A stretch of 64,000 bases of DNA from Chryseolinea lacunae (lineage in GTDB: Bacteria; Bacteroidota; Bacteroidia; Cytophagales; Cyclobacteriaceae): positions 694,996 to 758,995 of the forward strand of contig NZ_JAERRB010000002.1 of NCBI RefSeq assembly GCF_016735595.1, read 5' to 3'. Within the stretch, counting starts at the first letter, position 1, and each line of letters begins with the position of its first letter. Position numbers and translations under genes: made by a program. Positions 11,319-18,714 of the stretch are shown here, in pieces. Under the pieces are notes generated by a model. That model saw nothing but the letters and a program-made list of their open reading frames with translations. It was not told where the DNA came from and made no database searches.

Positions 11319-12085
11319 ACTACAGAACCATAACCCTGCTCTTTGTGGCCGGACTGGCGGCGATGCTGGTCTATGACGCGATGGAGACGTTGGCGTGGTG
11401 GTATTTTGTTTTGTGGGGCGTGCTCTACCTCTCTGCGCTGGCGTATGGTGCCACCGTGCTGTCGGCGGCCTTCTTCCTGCCGGTGAACTACAAAGGCCCC
11501 GAGGCCTCGCGCAGCATTGCCATCACGTTCGACGATGGCCCCATTCCCGGCAACACCGAACGGGCACTCGAGATCCTGAAAGCCCATCACGCGAAAGCGG
11601 CCTTCTTCTGCATCGGCCACCGCGTGAATGCCCATCCCGACCTGACCAAACGCATGCACGACGAAGGCCACCTGGTGGGCAACCACAGCTATTGGCACGC
11701 CGCCACGTTCGATTTGCAAACCGCTTCGAAGATTGAAAAAGAACTGGTGGACACCGACGCCGCCATCGAAAAAACCATTGGCGCAAAACCGAATTTTTTC
11801 CGCCCGCCCTATGGCGTAACCAACCCTATGCTGGCCACGGCCGTGAAGCGCGGCGGTTACAAAACCATTGGCTGGAGCGTGCGCTCGTTCGACACCGTGA
11901 GCAAAGACAAACAGACGTTGATGAACCGCGTGACCCGTTCGCTGAAAGGCGGCGACGTGGTGTTGTTTCACGACTATTGCGACATCACGCTGGAAATTCT
12001 GCCGGCGTTTCTCGACCACGTGGCGAAGGTTGGATTGAAAATTGTGAGGGTAGATGAACTATTGAATGAACGCGCGTATGGCTGA
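11312..12085 (+). CDS. Membrane-anchored polysaccharide deacetylase (NodB domain)
   Basis: 257 residues. Two hydrophobic segments (about 7-25 and 30-56) anchor a NodB-type carbohydrate esterase 4 domain with its canonical motifs: TFDDGP (72-77), metal-binding HSYWH (125-129) and RPPYG (164-168). CE4 enzymes remove N- or O-acyl groups from sugars, so it may deacetylate a sugar head group added by the GT2 enzyme of the same operon, or peptidoglycan. The ATG at 11312 overlaps the preceding stop; the frame continues upstream without a better start. Metal site looks intact; substrate is unknown. Confidence 0.87.
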   Translation: MLNYRTITLLFVAGLAAMLVYDAMETLAWWYFVLWGVLYLSALAYGATVLSAAFFLPVNYKGPEASRSIAITFDDGPIPGNTERALEILKAHHAKAAFFCIGHRVNAHPDLTKRMHDEGHLVGNHSYWHAATFDLQTASKIEKELVDTDAAIEKTIGAKPNFFRPPYGVTNPMLATAVKRGGYKTIGWSVRSFDTVSKDKQTLMNRVTRSLKGGDVVLFHDYCDITLEILPAFLDHVAKVGLKIVRVDELLNERAYG

Positions 12086-12728
12086 TAAACTGAAGTTGAT
12101 TTGTGGAGTGTTTTTCGTGTTGACAACGATGTTGTCTGTGACTGCGAAAGCGCAATATGCAGGCTATAAATCCGTGACGGATCTCGCGGCCTTCAAGAAA
12201 CAATTTGCCACCGAGTCGTCCAAGGTGTCGTCCATCACCAGCAACTTCACGCAGGAGAAAACATTGACGGCGCTCACGGAAACCATCACGTCAACCGGCA
12301 AGTTCTGGTTTCTGCGCAGCAACCGCGTGCGCATCGAATATGTGAAACCGTTCTCATACCTCATGGTGATGAACGGCGACAAGATGCTGGTGAAGAATGA
12401 TCAGAAAGAAAATCGCATCAACGTGAAGTCGAACAAGCTCTTTCAGCAAGTGAACCGCATCATGATCGACTGTGTGCAGGGAACCATTCTCGATAGCAAA
12501 GATTTCACGACAAAGGTTTTTGAGAACGACAAACTCTACCTGCTGGAGATGACACCCGTGTCGAAGTCGCTGAAAGAATTTTTTCAAACCATTGTGTTGC
12601 TGGTAGAGAAAAAAGACTATGCGGTGAAGTCGATCGAAATGAACGAACCCAGTGGCGACAAAACCACCATATCGTTCTCTGATAAAAAATTAAACGCACC
12701 CATTCCCGATGCGATGTTTGCTCTTTAG
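12066..12728 (+). CDS. LolA-like outer-membrane lipoprotein carrier
   Basis: 220-residue periplasmic protein with a signal peptide ending near AKAQ (about residue 29) and a LolA-type fold: SNFTQEKTLTALTETITSTGKFWF, then IEYVKPFSYLMVMNGDKMLV. Generic LolA moves lipoproteins across the periplasm; cluster-specific versions occur in aryl-polyene/flexirubin loci together with an MMPL exporter and probably carry the lipidic pigment to the outer membrane. The gene overlaps the deacetylase by 20 bases. A second start, ATG 12078, is possible. Confidence 0.87.
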   Translation: MNARMADKLKLICGVFFVLTTMLSVTAKAQYAGYKSVTDLAAFKKQFATESSKVSSITSNFTQEKTLTALTETITSTGKFWFLRSNRVRIEYVKPFSYLMVMNGDKMLVKNDQKENRINVKSNKLFQQVNRIMIDCVQGTILDSKDFTTKVFENDKLYLLEMTPVSKSLKEFFQTIVLLVEKKDYAVKSIEMNEPSGDKTTISFSDKKLNAPIPDAMFAL

Positions 12729-13332
12729 CGCCTGCTGCCTGTTGCTGATGCGCTGCGCGTCCGACTACAAGGGACTGCAGGCCACAACACCCGACGCGGC
12801 CTGCGCGGCGAAGATCGCTCCAACCCAATTCAACACCGGCTGGTACAACGCCAATGTGGATGTTTATGGCCGCCACATCAGCGGGCTGTTGCTCATCAAA
12901 AACATGCCCGACAGTTCGTTCCGCGTGGTGTTTACGAACGAGGCAGGCGTCACGTTTTTTGACTTTGGCTTTCTGGCCAACGGCGAGTTCAAGGTGCACA
13001 ATGCCATACACCAGCTGAACAAAAAAGCGGTGATCCAAACCCTGCGAAAAGATTTTGAATTGATCCTGGGATTGCCCTTCCGGAAGGGAACGGTGCAACG
13101 CTGGACGAAGGACGACGAGGTTTTCTATGGCGTGGTTCAAAAAAAGGAAACGGCCTATTTTATAACCAGTAAAGATTGTGCTTCTTTGCGCAGGCTGGAA
13201 TGGGGCGCCGCCCGCAAACGAAAGGTGACGGTGCTATTGCCGGGATCGCCTTATCCTTCGCCCGAGGTGCTGGAACTGAAACACCACACGTTCAACATGC
13301 AGATTAAACTGGCCCGATTCACAAAAGAATGA
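12709..13332 (+). CDS. Small putative lipoprotein of the pigment operon
   Basis: 207 residues, no family recognised. The N-terminus is a short hydrophobic stretch ending in LLMRCAS, suggesting lipidation at Cys16, although Arg at -1 is unusual for a lipobox. The rest is predicted beta-rich. It overlaps the LolA-like gene by 20 bases. Pairing of a LolA-like carrier with a cluster-specific lipoprotein is typical of aryl-polyene loci, so it may be the LolB-like acceptor at the outer membrane; this is inference from position. Confidence 0.75.
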   Translation: MRCLLFSACCLLLMRCASDYKGLQATTPDAACAAKIAPTQFNTGWYNANVDVYGRHISGLLLIKNMPDSSFRVVFTNEAGVTFFDFGFLANGEFKVHNAIHQLNKKAVIQTLRKDFELILGLPFRKGTVQRWTKDDEVFYGVVQKKETAYFITSKDCASLRRLEWGAARKRKVTVLLPGSPYPSPEVLELKHHTFNMQIKLARFTKE

Positions 13333-13697
13333 TGTTGCTCAACGACTTTTATACACTCGTGCACCACGAAGCCACACCCGGCGTCGTGAAAGCAAAAATT
13401 TCCATCCGCCGCGACCATCGCATTTTCGACGGTCACTTTCCCGGGCTGCCCATCGTGCCCGGCGTGTGCATGATGCAGATCATCCGCGAGCTTATGGAGA
13501 TCACCACCAAAAGAACACTGCGCATCGCAGAGGCCGACAACATGAAGTTTCTGTCGGTCATCAATCCCGACAATAACAAAGAAGTGGAGGCCGCTGTTAC
13601 CTACACCGAGGGCGCGGACCAATGGGTGGTGAATGCCACCTTGTTTGCCGACACCGTCACCTTCTTCAAAATTAAAGCTACGCTGAAAACCGCCTGA
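13329..13697 (+). CDS. Hotdog-fold dehydratase subunit with GHFPG motif (ApeI-like)
   Basis: 122-residue FabZ/ApeI-type hotdog protein. The FabZ histidine is present (His36 in DGHFPGLPIVPG), but the acid expected 14 residues later is Gln50 (PGVCMMQII; FabZ has Glu). This is the reverse of the dehydratase-like protein at 3152, which keeps the Glu and lacks the His. Overlaps the preceding stop by four bases and is overlapped by the next gene, so it is embedded in the operon. Likely forms the dehydratase with its counterpart. Confidence 0.83.
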   Translation: MMLLNDFYTLVHHEATPGVVKAKISIRRDHRIFDGHFPGLPIVPGVCMMQIIRELMEITTKRTLRIAEADNMKFLSVINPDNNKEVEAAVTYTEGADQWVVNATLFADTVTFFKIKATLKTA

Positions 13698-14527
13698 TGG
13701 AACCTGCAGAATTCCGTGCGTTATGTAAGCAAAAGAAAGTGTGCGTGCTGGTGCCCACCTACAACAATGAAAAAACGGTAGGGCAGGTAGTGCGCGATGT
13801 ACTTGACTATACCGACCAGGTGATTGTGGTGAACGACGGCGCCACAGACACGACCCCACAAATTCTACAACAGTTTCCGCAGATCGACCTCGTGAGCTAT
13901 CTGCCCAACCGTGGCAAAGGTTATGGCCTTCGTCAGGGATTTAAGCGCGCCGTGGAGGCGGGCTACGACTACGCCATCACCATCGACTCCGACGGTCAGC
14001 ATTTTGCCGCCGACTTGCCAAAGTTCATGCATGCTCTAGCAGAACATCCACACGCCGTCATCATTGGTGCGCGCAACATGGAGCAGGCCAGTGTGCCGGG
14101 CAAGAGCAGCTTTGGTAATAAATTTTCGAACTTCTGGTTTTGGGTGGAGACGGGCTTGAAGCGCAACGACACACAAAGCGGCTATCGCCTCTATCCGGTG
14201 AAAGCCCTTCAGGGAATCACGTTCATCACCCGCAAATTTGAATTTGAAATTGAAGTGCTGGTGCGGGCATCGTGGCGCGGCATAGACATGGCCGAAGTGC
14301 CGGTGAAAGTGTTTTATGCAACGCGCGAAGAACGCGTGTCGCACTTCAGACCGTTCAAAGATTTTACGCGCATCAGCATACTCAACACGGTGCTGGTCAC
14401 CATTGCCTTTCTCTACATCAAGCCCCGCGATTTCTTCCGGAGCTTTAAAAAAAAAATTTCGGTGAGTTCGTCCGCGAACAACTCTTCGGTGCACATGAAT
14501 CCGACCGGGTCAAAGCCTTCTCTGTAG
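13697..14527 (+). CDS. Glycosyltransferase family 2 (N-terminal part of a GT2-DUF2062 protein)
   Basis: GT-A fold glycosyltransferase of the dolichol-phosphate-mannose-synthase type: VLVPTYNNEKT (18-27), VVNDGATDTT, and the metal-binding Asp97-Ser-Asp99 (TIDSDGQH). The first 250 or so residues are normal up to YIKPRDFFRSFKKK; then the frame crosses ten adenines (14447-14456) and continues for about 24 residues of Ser/Asn-rich, non-conserved sequence to a stop at 14527. In the -1 frame the sequence continues at once into a DUF2062 domain, so the tail is probably an artefact of missing a frameshift. It would transfer a sugar from a nucleotide- or lipid-linked donor to the pigment or its carrier. 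Confidence 0.87.
   Translation: MEPAEFRALCKQKKVCVLVPTYNNEKTVGQVVRDVLDYTDQVIVVNDGATDTTPQILQQFPQIDLVSYLPNRGKGYGLRQGFKRAVEAGYDYAITIDSDGQHFAADLPKFMHALAEHPHAVIIGARNMEQASVPGKSSFGNKFSNFWFWVETGLKRNDTQSGYRLYPVKALQGITFITRKFEFEIEVLVRASWRGIDMAEVPVKVFYATREERVSHFRPFKDFTRISILNTVLVTIAFLYIKPRDFFRSFKKKISVSSSANNSSVHMNPTGSKPSL
14447..14456 (+). promoter_or_regulatory. A10 slippery run at the GT2/DUF2062 junction
   Basis: Ten consecutive A followed by TTT. A -1 ribosomal shift, or insertion of one extra A by RNA polymerase slippage, would join GT2 to DUF2062. The stop of the DUF2062 frame (TAA 14446-14448) sits exactly at the run, so the downstream frame only opens there. A sequencing or assembly error in the homopolymer would look the same. 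Confidence 0.55.
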
Positions 14528-14877
14528 CCTTTGGTATTTTTATGGGCATTGTGCCGTTGTGGGGGCTTCAGCTGGCGCTGGCCATCGCGTTGTCGTTTGT
14601 GTTCAAGCTCAACAAGGCGTTGGTCATCATCGCCGCCAACATCAGCATTCCGCCCATGATTCCGTTCATTCTATTCCTCAGCTACTACACCGGCAGGATC
14701 TGGATGGGCGCGCACGCGCAAACGCTGCGGTTCAGCACCGACATCAACCTGCAGGAAATGCAGCAGAACTTTTTGCAGTATGTGCTGGGTGCCACAACGC
14801 TGGCCGTCGTGGCCGGTGTTATCTTTGGGCTGGTGACGTATGCCGCCTTGAAATTGTTTAAGCGTTCCCGATCCTGA
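14449..14877 (+). CDS. DUF2062 membrane domain, readable only by frameshift from GT2
   Basis: In this frame conserved DUF2062-like sequence starts directly after the A10 run (FGEFVREQLFGAHESDRV, then KAFSVAFGIFMGIVPLWGLQ) and continues through two or three membrane segments to position 14877. There is no start codon before ATG 14542, and starting there would remove about 30 residues, including conserved ones. The domain is small, integral-membrane and often fused C-terminally to GT2 enzymes in Bacteroidota. I therefore read it as the C-terminal half of the glycosyltransferase. The MMPL gene starts three bases downstream. Confidence 0.75.
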   Translation, partial: KKNFGEFVREQLFGAHESDRVKAFSVAFGIFMGIVPLWGLQLALAIALSFVFKLNKALVIIAANISIPPMIPFILFLSYYTGRIWMGAHAQTLRFSTDINLQEMQQNFLQYVLGATTLAVVAGVIFGLVTYAALKLFKRSRS

Positions 14878-14880
14878 CCC

Positions 14881-17800
14881 ATGGCCCAGTTGTTTCTTTC
14901 CCTATACGATTTTTTTCAGCGACGCAAGCCGCTCTTCTGGACTGTGTTTGTCGGCACCGTGGCGTTGCTTGCCGTGGGTGCGTCGCGCATCACACTGGAG
15001 GAAGACATTACCAAATTTTTCCCCGACGATCCGCGTGTTGAAAAACTGAACTATGTGTTCCAGAACTCCAAGTTTGTGGAGCGCATGGTGGTGATGGTGT
15101 CTATGAAAGACAGCACCACGACACCCGATGCCGACAGCCTCATTGCCCGCGCCGAAACCATTGTGACCCGCATCCACAGCGAGCTGAAGCCCTATGTGAA
15201 ACAAATCACCACGCGTGTAGACGACGAGAAGATTATGGAGGTGTTCAAGTCGGTGCACGACTACCTTCCCATCTTTCTCACCGAAGACGACTACGCCCAA
15301 CTTGATTCGCTGAGCCGCCCCGAAAAAGTGCGCAGCGTGCTGGAACAAAACTACCAGCAACTGATTTCGCCGGCAGGCATGGCGTTGAAAAAAATCATTG
15401 TTCAGGACCCGCTGGGATTTTCATTTCTGGCGTTGAAGAAACTTCGTCAGCTTCAGTACGACGAAAACTTTGAATTATACGACAGCTACATCGTCACCAA
15501 AGATCACCGGCACTTGCTGTTTTTTCTGCAACCGGTTTATGGTCCCAGTGAAACGGGCAAGAACACCGACTTTGTGGCGGGCCTTGAAAAGATCATGCAG
15601 GAAACCACGCCACAAGGTTCGCCGGTGATGGCTTCCTATTTTGGTGCGTCGGCCGTGGCGGTGGGCAATGCCACACAACTGCGAAAGGACTCGATGCTAA
15701 CGGTGAGCATCATGGTGGTGTTGCTGGGGGTGTTGCTCATTGGCTATTTCCGCAAGAAGCGCGTTCCGTTTCTGATCTTCATACCCGTGGCGTTTGGCGG
15801 CGTGTTTTCGCTTTGCGGCATCTACCTGGTGCAGGGCACAGTGTCGATACTGGCGCTCGCCGCGGGCGCAGTAATCCTAGGCATTGCCGTGAACTATTCC
15901 CTGCATTTCCTCGCCCACCTGAAGCATACGCACGATGTGAAGACGGTGATCAAAGACCTCACGGCCCCCATGACGCTGGGCAGCACCACCACGGTGCTGG
16001 CCTTCTTCTGTCTGCAATTTGCCAACGCGGCCGTGTTGCGCGACGTGGGGTTGTTTGCCGGATTCAGCTTGATCGGTGCCGCCTTGTGTTCGCTTATTTT
16101 CCTGCCCCACTTTCTGTCAGCAACCATGTTTCCGGCGCACGATGAATCGGAGAGCCGGTTGGAACGCATGCTGATGTCGTTTGAATCGCCCCGTGTTTTG
16201 GTGCTGATTATTTTCCTGGCCACACCGGTGTTTCTGTATTTTGCGCAAGGCGTGTCGTTCAACAGCGACATGGGCAAGCTCAACTTCATGCACGACGACA
16301 CCCGGAACGCGCAGGTGCGGTTAGAGACCATCAACAACGCTTCGCTTGGCGCGGTGTATGTTGTGTCGACCGGCAACACATTGGAGGCAGCACTCCGCAA
16401 GAATGAACAGGCCACGCCGGTGTTGCAGACACTGAAAGACAATGGCACCATTCATAAATTTTCGTCGGTGTCGCTCTTCCTGCTGTCCGACTCGCTGCAA
16501 CGCCTGCGCATAGACCGGTGGAATGTTTTCTGGACACCACAGCGCAAAGCCTCCCTGCTCGCCGCCGTGAACACGGAAGCAACGGCGCTGAAGTTTTCGC
16601 AGCAGGTCATCGGAAATTTTGAACACCTGATCACCAAAGAATATCACCCCGCCACACGCGACGACATGTCCACCATCCGCGACGCCTTCTTCGACGACTA
16701 CATTATCGAAAAAGACGGACGCGCCACGGTGATCTCGCTGGCCAACGTAGACGCTGCACACAAAGCTATAGCTTATGCGGCGTTGAAACCTGCGCCCGTG
16801 CAAGCCTTCGACCGCCAGATGCTCACAAACCTGTTTGTGGAATATGTGCATGCCGATTTTAATTTCATTGTCACGTTCACGGCGTTGCTGGTCTTTAGTG
16901 CACTGTTTCTTTCCTATGGGCGCATCGAACTCACGTTCATCACGTTCGTGCCCATGTTCATCACGTGGATCTGGATTTTGGGGATTATGGCGTTGGTGGG
17001 CATCGAGTTTAATATCATCAACGTGATGGTGTCGACGTTCATCTTTGGGTTGGGCGATGACTACAGTATTTTTATCATGGATGGATTGCAACAGGACTAT
17101 GCCTACAATCGTAAAAATCTTCCGTCGATACGCGCATCCATTTTTCTTTCGGCCGTCACCACCATTGCCGGGTTGGGTGTTTTGATTTTTGCAAAGCATC
17201 CGGCGCTGCGTTCCATCGCGGCCATTTCCATCATCGGCATTGTGTGTGTGTTTGTGATGGCGCAGACGCTGGAGCCGTTCCTGTTCCGGTGGCTCATCAC
17301 CAACCGCACAAAGAAAGGTTTCACGCCCATGACGTGGGCGGGCATTTTCAGAACCACGTTCACCTATGGATTTTTTGTGACGGGTGCATTTGTGTTGACG
17401 CTGATCGGGTTTGTGCTGCGGCTGATTCCCGTTGGAAAAAAATCCATACGCATTTTCTTTCACACGCTCATCCGTTGGCTCACTTGGTCGGTCATCTACA
17501 TGGAGCCGAACGTGCGCAAGCGCATCATCGGAAAAGCGCCCGACACCTTTTTGCGTGCCCACGTGATCATCGCCAACCACGCGTCGTTCCTCGACATTCT
17601 GCTCACCACCATGCTCCATCCCAAACTGATTCTGCTCACGAACAAGTGGGTTTGGAACTCGCCCGTGTTTGGCGGCGTGGTGCGCTTGGCCGACTACTAT
17701 CCCGTGTCGGAAGGTGCCGAAGACAGCATTGACCGGTTGAAAGACCGGGTGGGAGAGGGCTATTCGGTGGTGGTGTTTCCCGAGGGCACCCGTTCGGAAG

Positions 17801-18714
17801 ACGGCAAGCTGAAACGTTTTCACAAGGGCGCTTTCTTTATGGCGCAGGAAATGAATGTGCCCATCCAACCCTTGCTCATTCACGGTGCCAGCGACGCCAT
17901 TCCGAAGGGGACATTTTACCTGAACCCCGGCCAGCTCACGCTGAAATTTCTTCCCCCCATTGAGCCCGACGATGCGCGGTTTGGCGCCACCTATTCGGAG
18001 CGGACCAAGGGCATCAGCCGCCATTTCAAGCAGGAGTATGCCGCACTCGCCCGCGAGATTGAAACCGCCGACTATTTTTCACATCGGCTCATCAGCAACT
18101 ACCTCTACAAGGGGCCTGTGCTGGAGTGGTATATGCGGGTGAAGCTTCGCCTGGAAAAGAACTACGCCCCCTTTCACAGGCTGATCCCCCTTCAAGCGAC
18201 CATCCTGGACCTGGGTTGCGGCTATGGGTTTCTCAGCTACATGCTGCAATTCCTGTCGGCCGATCGCGTCATCACGGGTGTTGACTATGACGAGGAAAAA
18301 ATTGAAACAGCACAAAATGGCTATCAGAAAACCGACCGTCTCAATTTCTTTTGTGCCGACGTCACGCAGTTTCCGCTGGCCACCTACGATGTCATCATCA
18401 TCAGCGATGTGTTGCACTATCTTCCGGCCGAGGCGCAGGAAGCATTGCTGGTACGCTGTTTCCATGCGTTACATGCCGGTGGCAAACTGATTGTGCGTGA
18501 TGGCAACGCCGATTTGAAGGAACGCCACAAGGGCACACAGCTCACGGAGTTTTTCTCGGTGAAAGTGCTGAAGTTCAACAAATCGACCAACGCGCTCAAT
18601 TTTGTGTCCGGTCAAAAGCTAACCGATCTCGCCCGGCGTCACGGGCTGAAAGTGGCCGAACAGGATGATGCAAAGTTTACCTCGAATGTTATTTTTGTGA
18701 TGGAAAAGCCATAG
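14881..18714 (+). CDS. MMPL exporter fused to PlsC acyltransferase and SAM methyltransferase
   Basis: 1277-residue three-part protein. Residues about 1-840 form an RND/MMPL exporter with two repeats of one TM plus a large periplasmic loop plus a five-TM block (for example VLLGVLLIGYFRKKRVPFLIF and the GLGDDYSIFIMDGL region). Residues about 880-1070 form a PlsC-type acyltransferase with NHASFLD near 897 and FPEGTRS near 966. Residues about 1085-1277 form a class I methyltransferase with DLGCGYG near 1111. The exporter would flip or extrude the lipidic pigment, while the two cytoplasmic domains could acylate and methylate it just before export. MMPL proteins are standard in APE clusters; the triple fusion is the notable part. 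Confidence 0.9.
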   Translation: MAQLFLSLYDFFQRRKPLFWTVFVGTVALLAVGASRITLEEDITKFFPDDPRVEKLNYVFQNSKFVERMVVMVSMKDSTTTPDADSLIARAETIVTRIHSELKPYVKQITTRVDDEKIMEVFKSVHDYLPIFLTEDDYAQLDSLSRPEKVRSVLEQNYQQLISPAGMALKKIIVQDPLGFSFLALKKLRQLQYDENFELYDSYIVTKDHRHLLFFLQPVYGPSETGKNTDFVAGLEKIMQETTPQGSPVMASYFGASAVAVGNATQLRKDSMLTVSIMVVLLGVLLIGYFRKKRVPFLIFIPVAFGGVFSLCGIYLVQGTVSILALAAGAVILGIAVNYSLHFLAHLKHTHDVKTVIKDLTAPMTLGSTTTVLAFFCLQFANAAVLRDVGLFAGFSLIGAALCSLIFLPHFLSATMFPAHDESESRLERMLMSFESPRVLVLIIFLATPVFLYFAQGVSFNSDMGKLNFMHDDTRNAQVRLETINNASLGAVYVVSTGNTLEAALRKNEQATPVLQTLKDNGTIHKFSSVSLFLLSDSLQRLRIDRWNVFWTPQRKASLLAAVNTEATALKFSQQVIGNFEHLITKEYHPATRDDMSTIRDAFFDDYIIEKDGRATVISLANVDAAHKAIAYAALKPAPVQAFDRQMLTNLFVEYVHADFNFIVTFTALLVFSALFLSYGRIELTFITFVPMFITWIWILGIMALVGIEFNIINVMVSTFIFGLGDDYSIFIMDGLQQDYAYNRKNLPSIRASIFLSAVTTIAGLGVLIFAKHPALRSIAAISIIGIVCVFVMAQTLEPFLFRWLITNRTKKGFTPMTWAGIFRTTFTYGFFVTGAFVLTLIGFVLRLIPVGKKSIRIFFHTLIRWLTWSVIYMEPNVRKRIIGKAPDTFLRAHVIIANHASFLDILLTTMLHPKLILLTNKWVWNSPVFGGVVRLADYYPVSEGAEDSIDRLKDRVGEGYSVVVFPEGTRSEDGKLKRFHKGAFFMAQEMNVPIQPLLIHGASDAIPKGTFYLNPGQLTLKFLPPIEPDDARFGATYSERTKGISRHFKQEYAALAREIETADYFSHRLISNYLYKGPVLEWYMRVKLRLEKNYAPFHRLIPLQATILDLGCGYGFLSYMLQFLSADRVITGVDYDEEKIETAQNGYQKTDRLNFFCADVTQFPLATYDVIIISDVLHYLPAEAQEALLVRCFHALHAGGKLIVRDGNADLKERHKGTQLTEFFSVKVLKFNKSTNALNFVSGQKLTDLARRHGLKVAEQDDAKFTSNVIFVMEKP

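What the first reader, a model, noticed from the sequence alone, without database searches (positions are those of the whole stretch)
14441..14600. A10 run joins a glycosyltransferase to a DUF2062 domain by -1 frameshift
The GT2 frame loses conserved sequence exactly at ten adenines (14447-14456) and ends 70 bases later; the -1 frame has a stop right at the run and, from there, encodes conserved-looking DUF2062 sequence with no usable start for 30 codons. Either the cell makes two products (a soluble short GT and a membrane-tethered GT-DUF2062) by slippage, or the assembly has a homopolymer error. The first option would set the ratio of free and membrane-bound pigment glycosyltransferase.
Basis: partly seen in the sequence, partly recalled or inferred. 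Interest (0 to 1): 0.75.

Follow-up and report, generated by a model that had tools for sequence, protein, structure and literature searches.

The report
Conserved slippery A-run makes two glycosyltransferases
A run of ten A's in a bacterial pigment gene keeps a sugar-transferring enzyme and a membrane domain in different reading frames in every run-bearing genome of its close-relative group, so the cell very probably makes a short and a long enzyme from one gene by slipping on the run, rather than the run being a sequencing mistake.

Summary
In detail: A10 at 14447-14456 separates a GT2 frame from a DUF2062 domain in the -1 frame. It is not an assembly error. In the Chryseolinea/Ohtaekwangia clade 19 of 21 sampled genomes have A10 or A11 with DUF2062 in -1; the other two lost the run and are fused in frame. 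The 28-31 codons between the run and the conserved ATG are under purifying selection in -1, not in the zero frame; 11 of 19 genomes have no start codon there. Outside the clade nearly all relatives are in-frame fusions, yet 42 of 104 in-frame loci carry A9-A11 at this junction, more than synonymous codon choice predicts. dnaX of the same genome has the same A10/-1 layout, as in 18 of 28 Cytophagales genomes. Best reading: programmed slippage, most likely by RNA polymerase, yields a short GT and a GT-DUF2062 fusion in a flexirubin-type pigment operon. No conserved downstream RNA structure was found, which speaks against a stimulated ribosomal shift. 'Soluble' is doubtful: the short form keeps a long hydrophobic helix. 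No transcript or protein data were available, so mechanism and ratio are inferred. A new member of a known kind.

The parts
13697..14527 (+). GT2 glycosyltransferase frame (zero frame), 276 aa; the short product
14447..14456 (+). A10 slippage run
   Evidence: A10/A11 in 19 of 21 clade genomes
14446..14448 (+). TAA in the -1 frame that overlaps the start of the run
14457..14527 (+). zero-frame tail after the run, not conserved between genomes
   Evidence: pN/pS 1.02 in the zero frame
14449..14877 (+). DUF2062 membrane domain in the -1 frame; C-terminal part of the long product
14458..14541 (+). 28 codons conserved in the -1 frame ahead of the conserved ATG
   Evidence: pN/pS 0.365 in -1
14881..18714 (+). 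downstream MMPL / acyltransferase / methyltransferase protein, starting 3 bases after the DUF2062 stop
12066..12728 (+). LolA2-type flexirubin transport protein, marks the operon type
   Evidence: NF053544, 209.9 bits, cut-off 125
13329..13697 (+). FabA-like dehydratase directly upstream

Best explanation
The gene encodes two proteins. Copying the A10 run, RNA polymerase slips on a fraction of transcripts and adds (or loses) A's. Faithful mRNA gives the short GT2 enzyme, ending some codons after the run; mRNA with a net shift into -1 gives a GT2-DUF2062 fusion held in the membrane. The run and its register are kept by selection. Shown here: run, register, conservation and coding constraint. 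Inferred: that the slip occurs at transcription and not on the ribosome, that both proteins accumulate, and that their ratio matters.
For: (1) 19 of 19 run-bearing clade genomes have DUF2062 in -1, A10 in 15 and A11 in 4; the two in-frame clade members (L047, L051) have no run. (2) Codons between run and conserved ATG: pN/pS 0.365 in -1, 1.02 in the zero frame, 1.75 in +1, summed over 137 of 171 pairs. (3) In-frame loci: A>=9 at the junction in 41 of 104, expected 14.9 (sd 2.95) from synonymous resampling; 42 such runs in 8,736 bases at the junction against 1 in 112,794 bases of the rest of the genes, and that one is the A11 of L154, which the window missed. Lys-Lys-Lys is nine A's in 31 of 40 at the junction and 3 of 50 in other ORFs of the same loci. 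Second set of 95 in-frame genes: 12, expected 5.6 (sd 1.6); 12 runs in 11,970 junction bases, 2 in 98,085 elsewhere. (4) Longest run at the junction of in-frame loci: A7-A8 in 7, A9-A11 in 42 of 104; nine is the length at which avoidance of A/T runs in coding regions shows in many bacteria (PMC1088944, abstract and passages). (5) dnaX in the same genome has A10 with tau in -1; so have 18 of 28 genomes, all 18 with exactly A10. (6) RNAalifold finds no structure after the run (energy 0.0 on 16 of the 19). (7) Published cassettes of another gene with 11, 9 and 7 A's shifted 63, 40 and 10% (PMC3711429, passages).
Against: No RNA or protein data. The slippery heptamer A_AAA_AAA lies in any run this long, so a ribosomal shift without strong stimulators is not excluded; 15 of 19 clade sequences have GGAG or GAAG within 12 bases upstream of the run, and by the GeneTack rule a single direction in a cluster points to ribosomal shifting (PMC3711429 section 10). 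62 of 104 in-frame loci, the two in-frame clade members among them, have no run of nine or more, so the short product is not universally needed. Outside the clade L157 is +1 and L153 -1 beside in-frame sisters. The resampling and Fisher tests do not correct for relatedness, and the second set shows a weaker excess.
Confidence: 0.75

Rival explanations
1. -1 programmed ribosomal frameshifting on the Lys codons (A_AAA_AAA), giving the same two proteins from unaltered mRNA.
For: Heptamer present in the run; direction -1 in 19 of 19 clade genomes; GGAG or GAAG within 12 bases upstream of the run in 15 of 19.
Against: No consensus stem-loop downstream (alifold 0.0 on 16 sequences; single-sequence z from -1.5 to 1.5 in the 8 tested). 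Third positions in the first 30 codons after the run are about as variable as elsewhere (0.57-0.61; lowest bins 0.47 at codons 31-40 after and 0.48 in the 10 codons before the run). A7-A8, enough for the heptamer, is far rarer at in-frame junctions than A9-A11 (7 against 42 of 104). dnaX comparison favours slippage at A10 (PMC3711429 section 23).
Confidence: 0.18
2. Assembly or sequencing error in the homopolymer; the gene is an ordinary in-frame fusion.
For: In-frame fusions are the rule outside the clade. Single-genome out-of-frame cases such as L147, L153, L157 next to in-frame sisters look like this.
Against: 19 of 19 run-bearing clade genomes, different assemblies including a single-contig genome (G001) and a type strain (L066), have the same register; A10 and A11 differ by a substitution beside the run (L031 against L032), not by an indel.
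Confidence: 0.02
3. Phase-variable locus switched by DNA slippage in the run.
For: Homopolymer in a cell-envelope gene; outside the clade close relatives can differ in register (L145/L153, L157/L160).
Against: In the clade no sampled genome is in frame with a run or in +1: 19 of 19 are -1.
Confidence: 0.03
4. Two separate genes: DUF2062 starts by itself or by re-initiation at the ATG near 14542.
For: An ATG is conserved 28 (31 in L046, L049) codons after the run in 19 of 19.
Against: The same Met is the consensus residue of the in-frame fusions (GVFMGI) and lies in a predicted helix. The codons ahead of it are under selection in -1. Distance from the zero-frame stop to that ATG ranges from -37 to +80 bases. 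11 of 19 have no ATG/GTG/TTG between run and that ATG.
Confidence: 0.04
5. The run serves translation speed (poly-Lys pausing before a membrane domain), and the shift is a tolerated side effect. This can hold alongside the other readings.
For: Run enriched also in in-frame genes.
Against: Does not explain a -1 register kept in 19 genomes.
Confidence: 0.1

Closest known systems
dnaX (gamma/tau) slippage: Thermus thermophilus type and the two-ORF -1 type of Antonov et al. 2013 (PMC3711429, section 23 read)
   Same: A9-A10 run, long product in the zero frame or in -1 depending on species, short and long product share the N-terminus; present in the window's own genome with A10/-1
   Different: Replication factor; two subunits of one clamp loader. 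Here a membrane glycosyltransferase of a pigment operon
tssM of Citrobacter rodentium (A11) and Yersinia tssM3 (PMC4256274, passages)
   Same: A-run makes two length variants by transcriptional slippage; the extra part is a C-terminal domain; one homologue encodes the short form by default, the other the long one
   Different: Demonstrated there with RNA and protein, and the ratio was shown to matter; type VI secretion
Polyprenyl-phosphate glycosyltransferases ArnC, DPMS (5mlz), GtrB
   Same: GT-A domain followed by membrane helices; top fold matches of the in-frame fusion model
   Different: Their membrane part is, to my recollection, not DUF2062 and not made by slippage; TM-scores are only 0.43-0.57

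Membership tests
Programmed transcriptional realignment (slippage) genes | Run of about nine or more A or T at the frame transition | tested here: met
   A10/A11 in 19 of 19 out-of-frame clade genomes
Programmed transcriptional realignment (slippage) genes | Run conserved across homologues beyond what the amino acids demand | tested here: met
   (not corrected for relatedness)
Programmed transcriptional realignment (slippage) genes | mRNA population with several run lengths | not testable with these tools
   no RNA reads
Programmed transcriptional realignment (slippage) genes | Both proteins made | not testable with these tools
   no proteome; coding constraint in -1 is indirect
-1 programmed ribosomal frameshifting | Slippery heptamer in phase | tested here: met
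   contained in the A10 run
-1 programmed ribosomal frameshifting | Downstream stem-loop or pseudoknot | tested here: not met
   16 of 19 clade sequences; pseudoknots not modelled
-1 programmed ribosomal frameshifting | Upstream Shine-Dalgarno-like stimulator | tested here: inconclusive
   GGAG or GAAG within 12 bases in 15 of 19, but these codons encode conserved Arg-Ser/Gly
Phase-variable contingency locus | Close relatives in different registers | tested here: not met
   19 of 19 run-bearing clade genomes in -1; single exceptions outside the clade
Flexirubin/aryl-polyene type operon | LolA, dehydratase, RND/MMPL exporter and acyltransferase genes together (functions as in the table of PMC8253772, passages) | tested here: met
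   in the 80 named loci MMPL lies downstream in 57 and LolA2 or FabA upstream in 32 (loci reach at most 4 kb each way)

The most novel reading that the evidence does not exclude
Slippage on A9-A11 is a general, repeatedly evolved expression device in Bacteroidota: the GT2-DUF2062 gene carries the run in either register in many lineages, so the default is mostly-long in some and mostly-short in others, and the same organisms use A10 in dnaX and possibly to choose between overlapping C-terminal tails of a topoisomerase IV subunit A-like protein.
Probability: 0.35. Interest if true: 0.82.

Novelty: new member of a known kind. Interest (0 to 1): 0.66.

Why it matters
Genes like this are easily annotated as two genes or as a broken gene. 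If the two products are real, one nucleotide run sets how much of an envelope glycosyltransferase carries its DUF2062 membrane domain, and it offers a handle on DUF2062, a domain named in only four papers of the held open-licence library (listing seen; none of the four titles concerns this use). The run, conserved in either register, gives a natural experiment on why cells want both forms. It also warns that out-of-frame homopolymers in this group should not be 'corrected'.

Tried and rejected
Homopolymer error, phase variation and independent initiation were each tested and rejected for the clade. A downstream stimulator was sought and not found.

Outliers that do not fit the clade's rule: L153 and L159 (-1, A10) and L157 (+1, A11) are single genomes, L153 and L157 with in-frame sisters; L147 (+1) has no A-run at the break (T7 there); L166 (+1) keeps the zero frame through the run and breaks about 60 codons later; L156 and L263 have no DUF2062 found; L216 and L238 run off their contigs. 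L204, L226 and L227 add three further -1/A10 cases in other families, L226 with an N near the junction.

Sampling. The first set is 139 loci, 129 distinct after removing 10 exact duplicates; L043 and L044 are nearly identical and both counted. The second set is 101 further loci. The structure test used 16 of 19 clade sequences, leaving out L046 and L049 (three-codon insertion) and L044. The pN/pS sums used 137 of 171 pairs, those of equal length. The AlphaFold model is of L047, an in-frame clade member, not of the window's own protein.

The NCBIfam hit of the DUF2062 part to a Brucella effector model is far below its cut-off (33.9 of 300 bits) and is taken as the shared domain only; not followed. 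Literature: no paper in the held library holds DUF2062 + glycosyltransferase + frameshift or flexirubin + frameshift + glycosyltransferase; it covers open-licence PMC papers only. Papers seen: PMC3711429 passages and sections 10 and 23; PMC1088944, PMC4256274, PMC8253772 and PMC5009743 passages; others in listings only.

Full report
What is there. The window holds a flexirubin/aryl-polyene type operon: a LolA2-type flexirubin transport protein (12066-12728; NCBIfam NF053544, 209.9 bits against a cut-off of 125), a FabA-like dehydratase (13329-13697), the GT2 gene (13697-14527) and an MMPL/acyltransferase/methyltransferase protein (14881-18714). The GT2 reading frame crosses ten A's at 14447-14456 and stops at 14527. 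The -1 frame has TAA at 14446-14448 and from 14449 runs open to 14877; it is a DUF2062 domain (71.4 bits) and the only one found in the genome.

Is it an error? No. Five other genomes of the genus are held, and the DUF2062 that follows this GT2 gene is in -1 in all six. A wider look gave 129 distinct loci of the gene: 104 in-frame fusions, 21 with DUF2062 in -1, 3 in +1, 1 without DUF2062. Of the 21 in -1, 19 form one clade with two in-frame members (21 rows, SH-aLRT 99, quick tree). By record title it includes a Chryseolinea MAG, Ohtaekwangia koreensis and Pseudochryseolinea flava (duplicates matched by sequence); Chryseolinea is in the order Cytophagales. The 19 have A10 (15) or A11 (4); the two in-frame members, L047 and L051, have no run. 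A11 differs from A10 by a substitution beside the run, not an indel, in L032 against L031, so the register is kept. Outside the clade the 108 other loci are 102 in frame, 2 in -1, 3 in +1, 1 without DUF2062.

Is the -1 frame translated as a fusion? Between the run and the conserved ATG lie 28 codons (31 in L046 and L049). Summed over 137 pairs, pN/pS is 0.365 in -1, 1.02 in the zero frame and 1.75 in +1 (pairs are not independent). 11 of 19 genomes have no ATG, GTG or TTG in this stretch. The zero-frame stop lies from 80 bases before to 37 bases after that ATG, which does not suit coupled re-initiation. The ATG's Met is also the consensus residue in the in-frame fusions.

The run is favoured in in-frame relatives too. 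At the junction 41 of 104 in-frame loci have A>=9, while synonymous resampling with each gene's and its neighbours' codon use gives 14.9 (sd 2.95); the rest of the same genes has 1 such run in 112,794 bases, which is the A11 of L154, whose junction the window missed. Lys-Lys-Lys is nine A's in 31 of 40 cases at the junction and in 3 of 50 in other ORFs of the same loci (Fisher p 1.5e-12). Some runs arise with other residues (Thr-Lys-Lys-Asn in L083, Leu-Lys-Lys-Asn in L086, Gln-Lys-Lys-Asn in L141). With a wider window the count is 42 of 104, and lengths jump between A8 (2) and A9 (18), A10 (20), A11 (4). A second set of 95 in-frame genes, analysed after the idea was formed, gives 12 against 5.6 (sd 1.6) expected, 8 of 12 Lys triplets as nine A's, and 2 runs in 98,085 bases elsewhere: the same direction, weaker. 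None of these tests corrects for relatedness; on the first tree the run state of the in-frame rows changes at least 17 times. The second set (101 loci) adds three more -1/A10 cases in other families (L204, L226, L227) and 3 loci without a DUF2062 hit; L204's nearest relatives are in frame without a run.

An internal control. Of 17 runs of A10 or more in the genome, one lies in dnaX: the gamma frame ends just after it and the tau part goes on in -1 (named by NCBIfam). dnaX was found in 28 of 29 genomes searched, the window's own included; the tau part is in -1 in 18, all with exactly A10, in frame in 8, and not detected in 2; 25 of 28 have A10 or A11 at the gamma/tau boundary (counted). The two-ORF dnaX type with A10 was described in PMC3711429 (section 23 read). 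So the organism very likely does slip at A10.

Polymerase or ribosome? A consensus RNA structure after the run is absent (RNAalifold 0.0 on 16 sequences; codon-shuffled alignments give a mean of -0.06). Third positions right after the run are not notably constrained; the lowest bins are 0.47 (codons 31-40 after) and 0.48 (10 codons before) against 0.52-0.66 elsewhere. Lengths of nine and more, rather than seven or eight, are favoured. In reporter cassettes of another gene, 11, 9 and 7 A's gave 63, 40 and 10% shift (PMC3711429, passages). I put slippage at transcription at 0.75 and a ribosomal shift at 0.18. With one direction in the clade the GeneTack rule would say ribosome (section 10), and a GGAG or GAAG stands within 12 bases upstream of the run in 15 of 19; but the 19 genomes share one origin, the bases upstream code for conserved residues, and dnaX shows both registers with the same run.

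What the two forms are. A model of the in-frame clade member L047 (30-row alignment, mean pLDDT 88.8) has a GT-A domain, a 32-residue helix (216-247), then DUF2062 helices; the junction falls after that helix. Top solved folds are ArnC, dolichyl-phosphate mannose synthase and GtrB (TM-scores 0.43-0.57); by sequence the best match is chondroitin synthase, with DPMS and GtrB next among 29. The zero-frame product therefore has the whole GT domain and a hydrophobic helix but no DUF2062. It may bind the membrane weakly; 'soluble' is not shown. That both forms could sit in one oligomer is a guess.

Compared with what is known. C. rodentium tssM1 and Yersinia tssM3 (PMC4256274, passages) are the nearest demonstrated parallel: slippage on an A-run, two length variants, and default short in one homologue, default long in the other. 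The finding is a new gene family for a known device. What is unusual is how widely the run recurs in either register.

Noticed in passing
L329-L334 (own genome G000:C2:19933-19942, also L175): Topoisomerase IV subunit A-like gene (Pfam DNA_topoisoIV 20.9 bits on a C-terminal fragment, below the cut-off of 31): in all six genus genomes an A10 run stands before the C-terminal tail and at least two frames stay open: a neutral-to-acidic tail (net charge 0 to -14) ending GVG[ES]TI, and a Lys-rich, histone H1-like tail (net charge +23 to +38). The zero frame is the basic one in L329-L331 and the other one in L332-L334; L333 and L334 have basic tails in both other frames. Possible alternative tails chosen by slippage; a Glu-rich frame read out of phase also tends to give Lys, so selection on both is not shown.
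   Followed up: partly
L191 / L301 (G000:C12:222390-222399, minus strand) and L302-L328: dnaX with A10 and the tau part in the -1 frame in 18 of 28 genomes of the order; in frame in 8, of which 6 have A10/A11 at the boundary.
   Followed up: partly
L197 (G000:C23:638344-638353): In-frame A10 inside a DsbD-like gene, between the N-terminal domain and the membrane domain.
   Followed up: no
L204 against L206-L208 and L210: One genome has A10/-1 and its nearest relatives, of the same genus code, are in frame without a run: a recent change of state or an assembly error.
   Followed up: no
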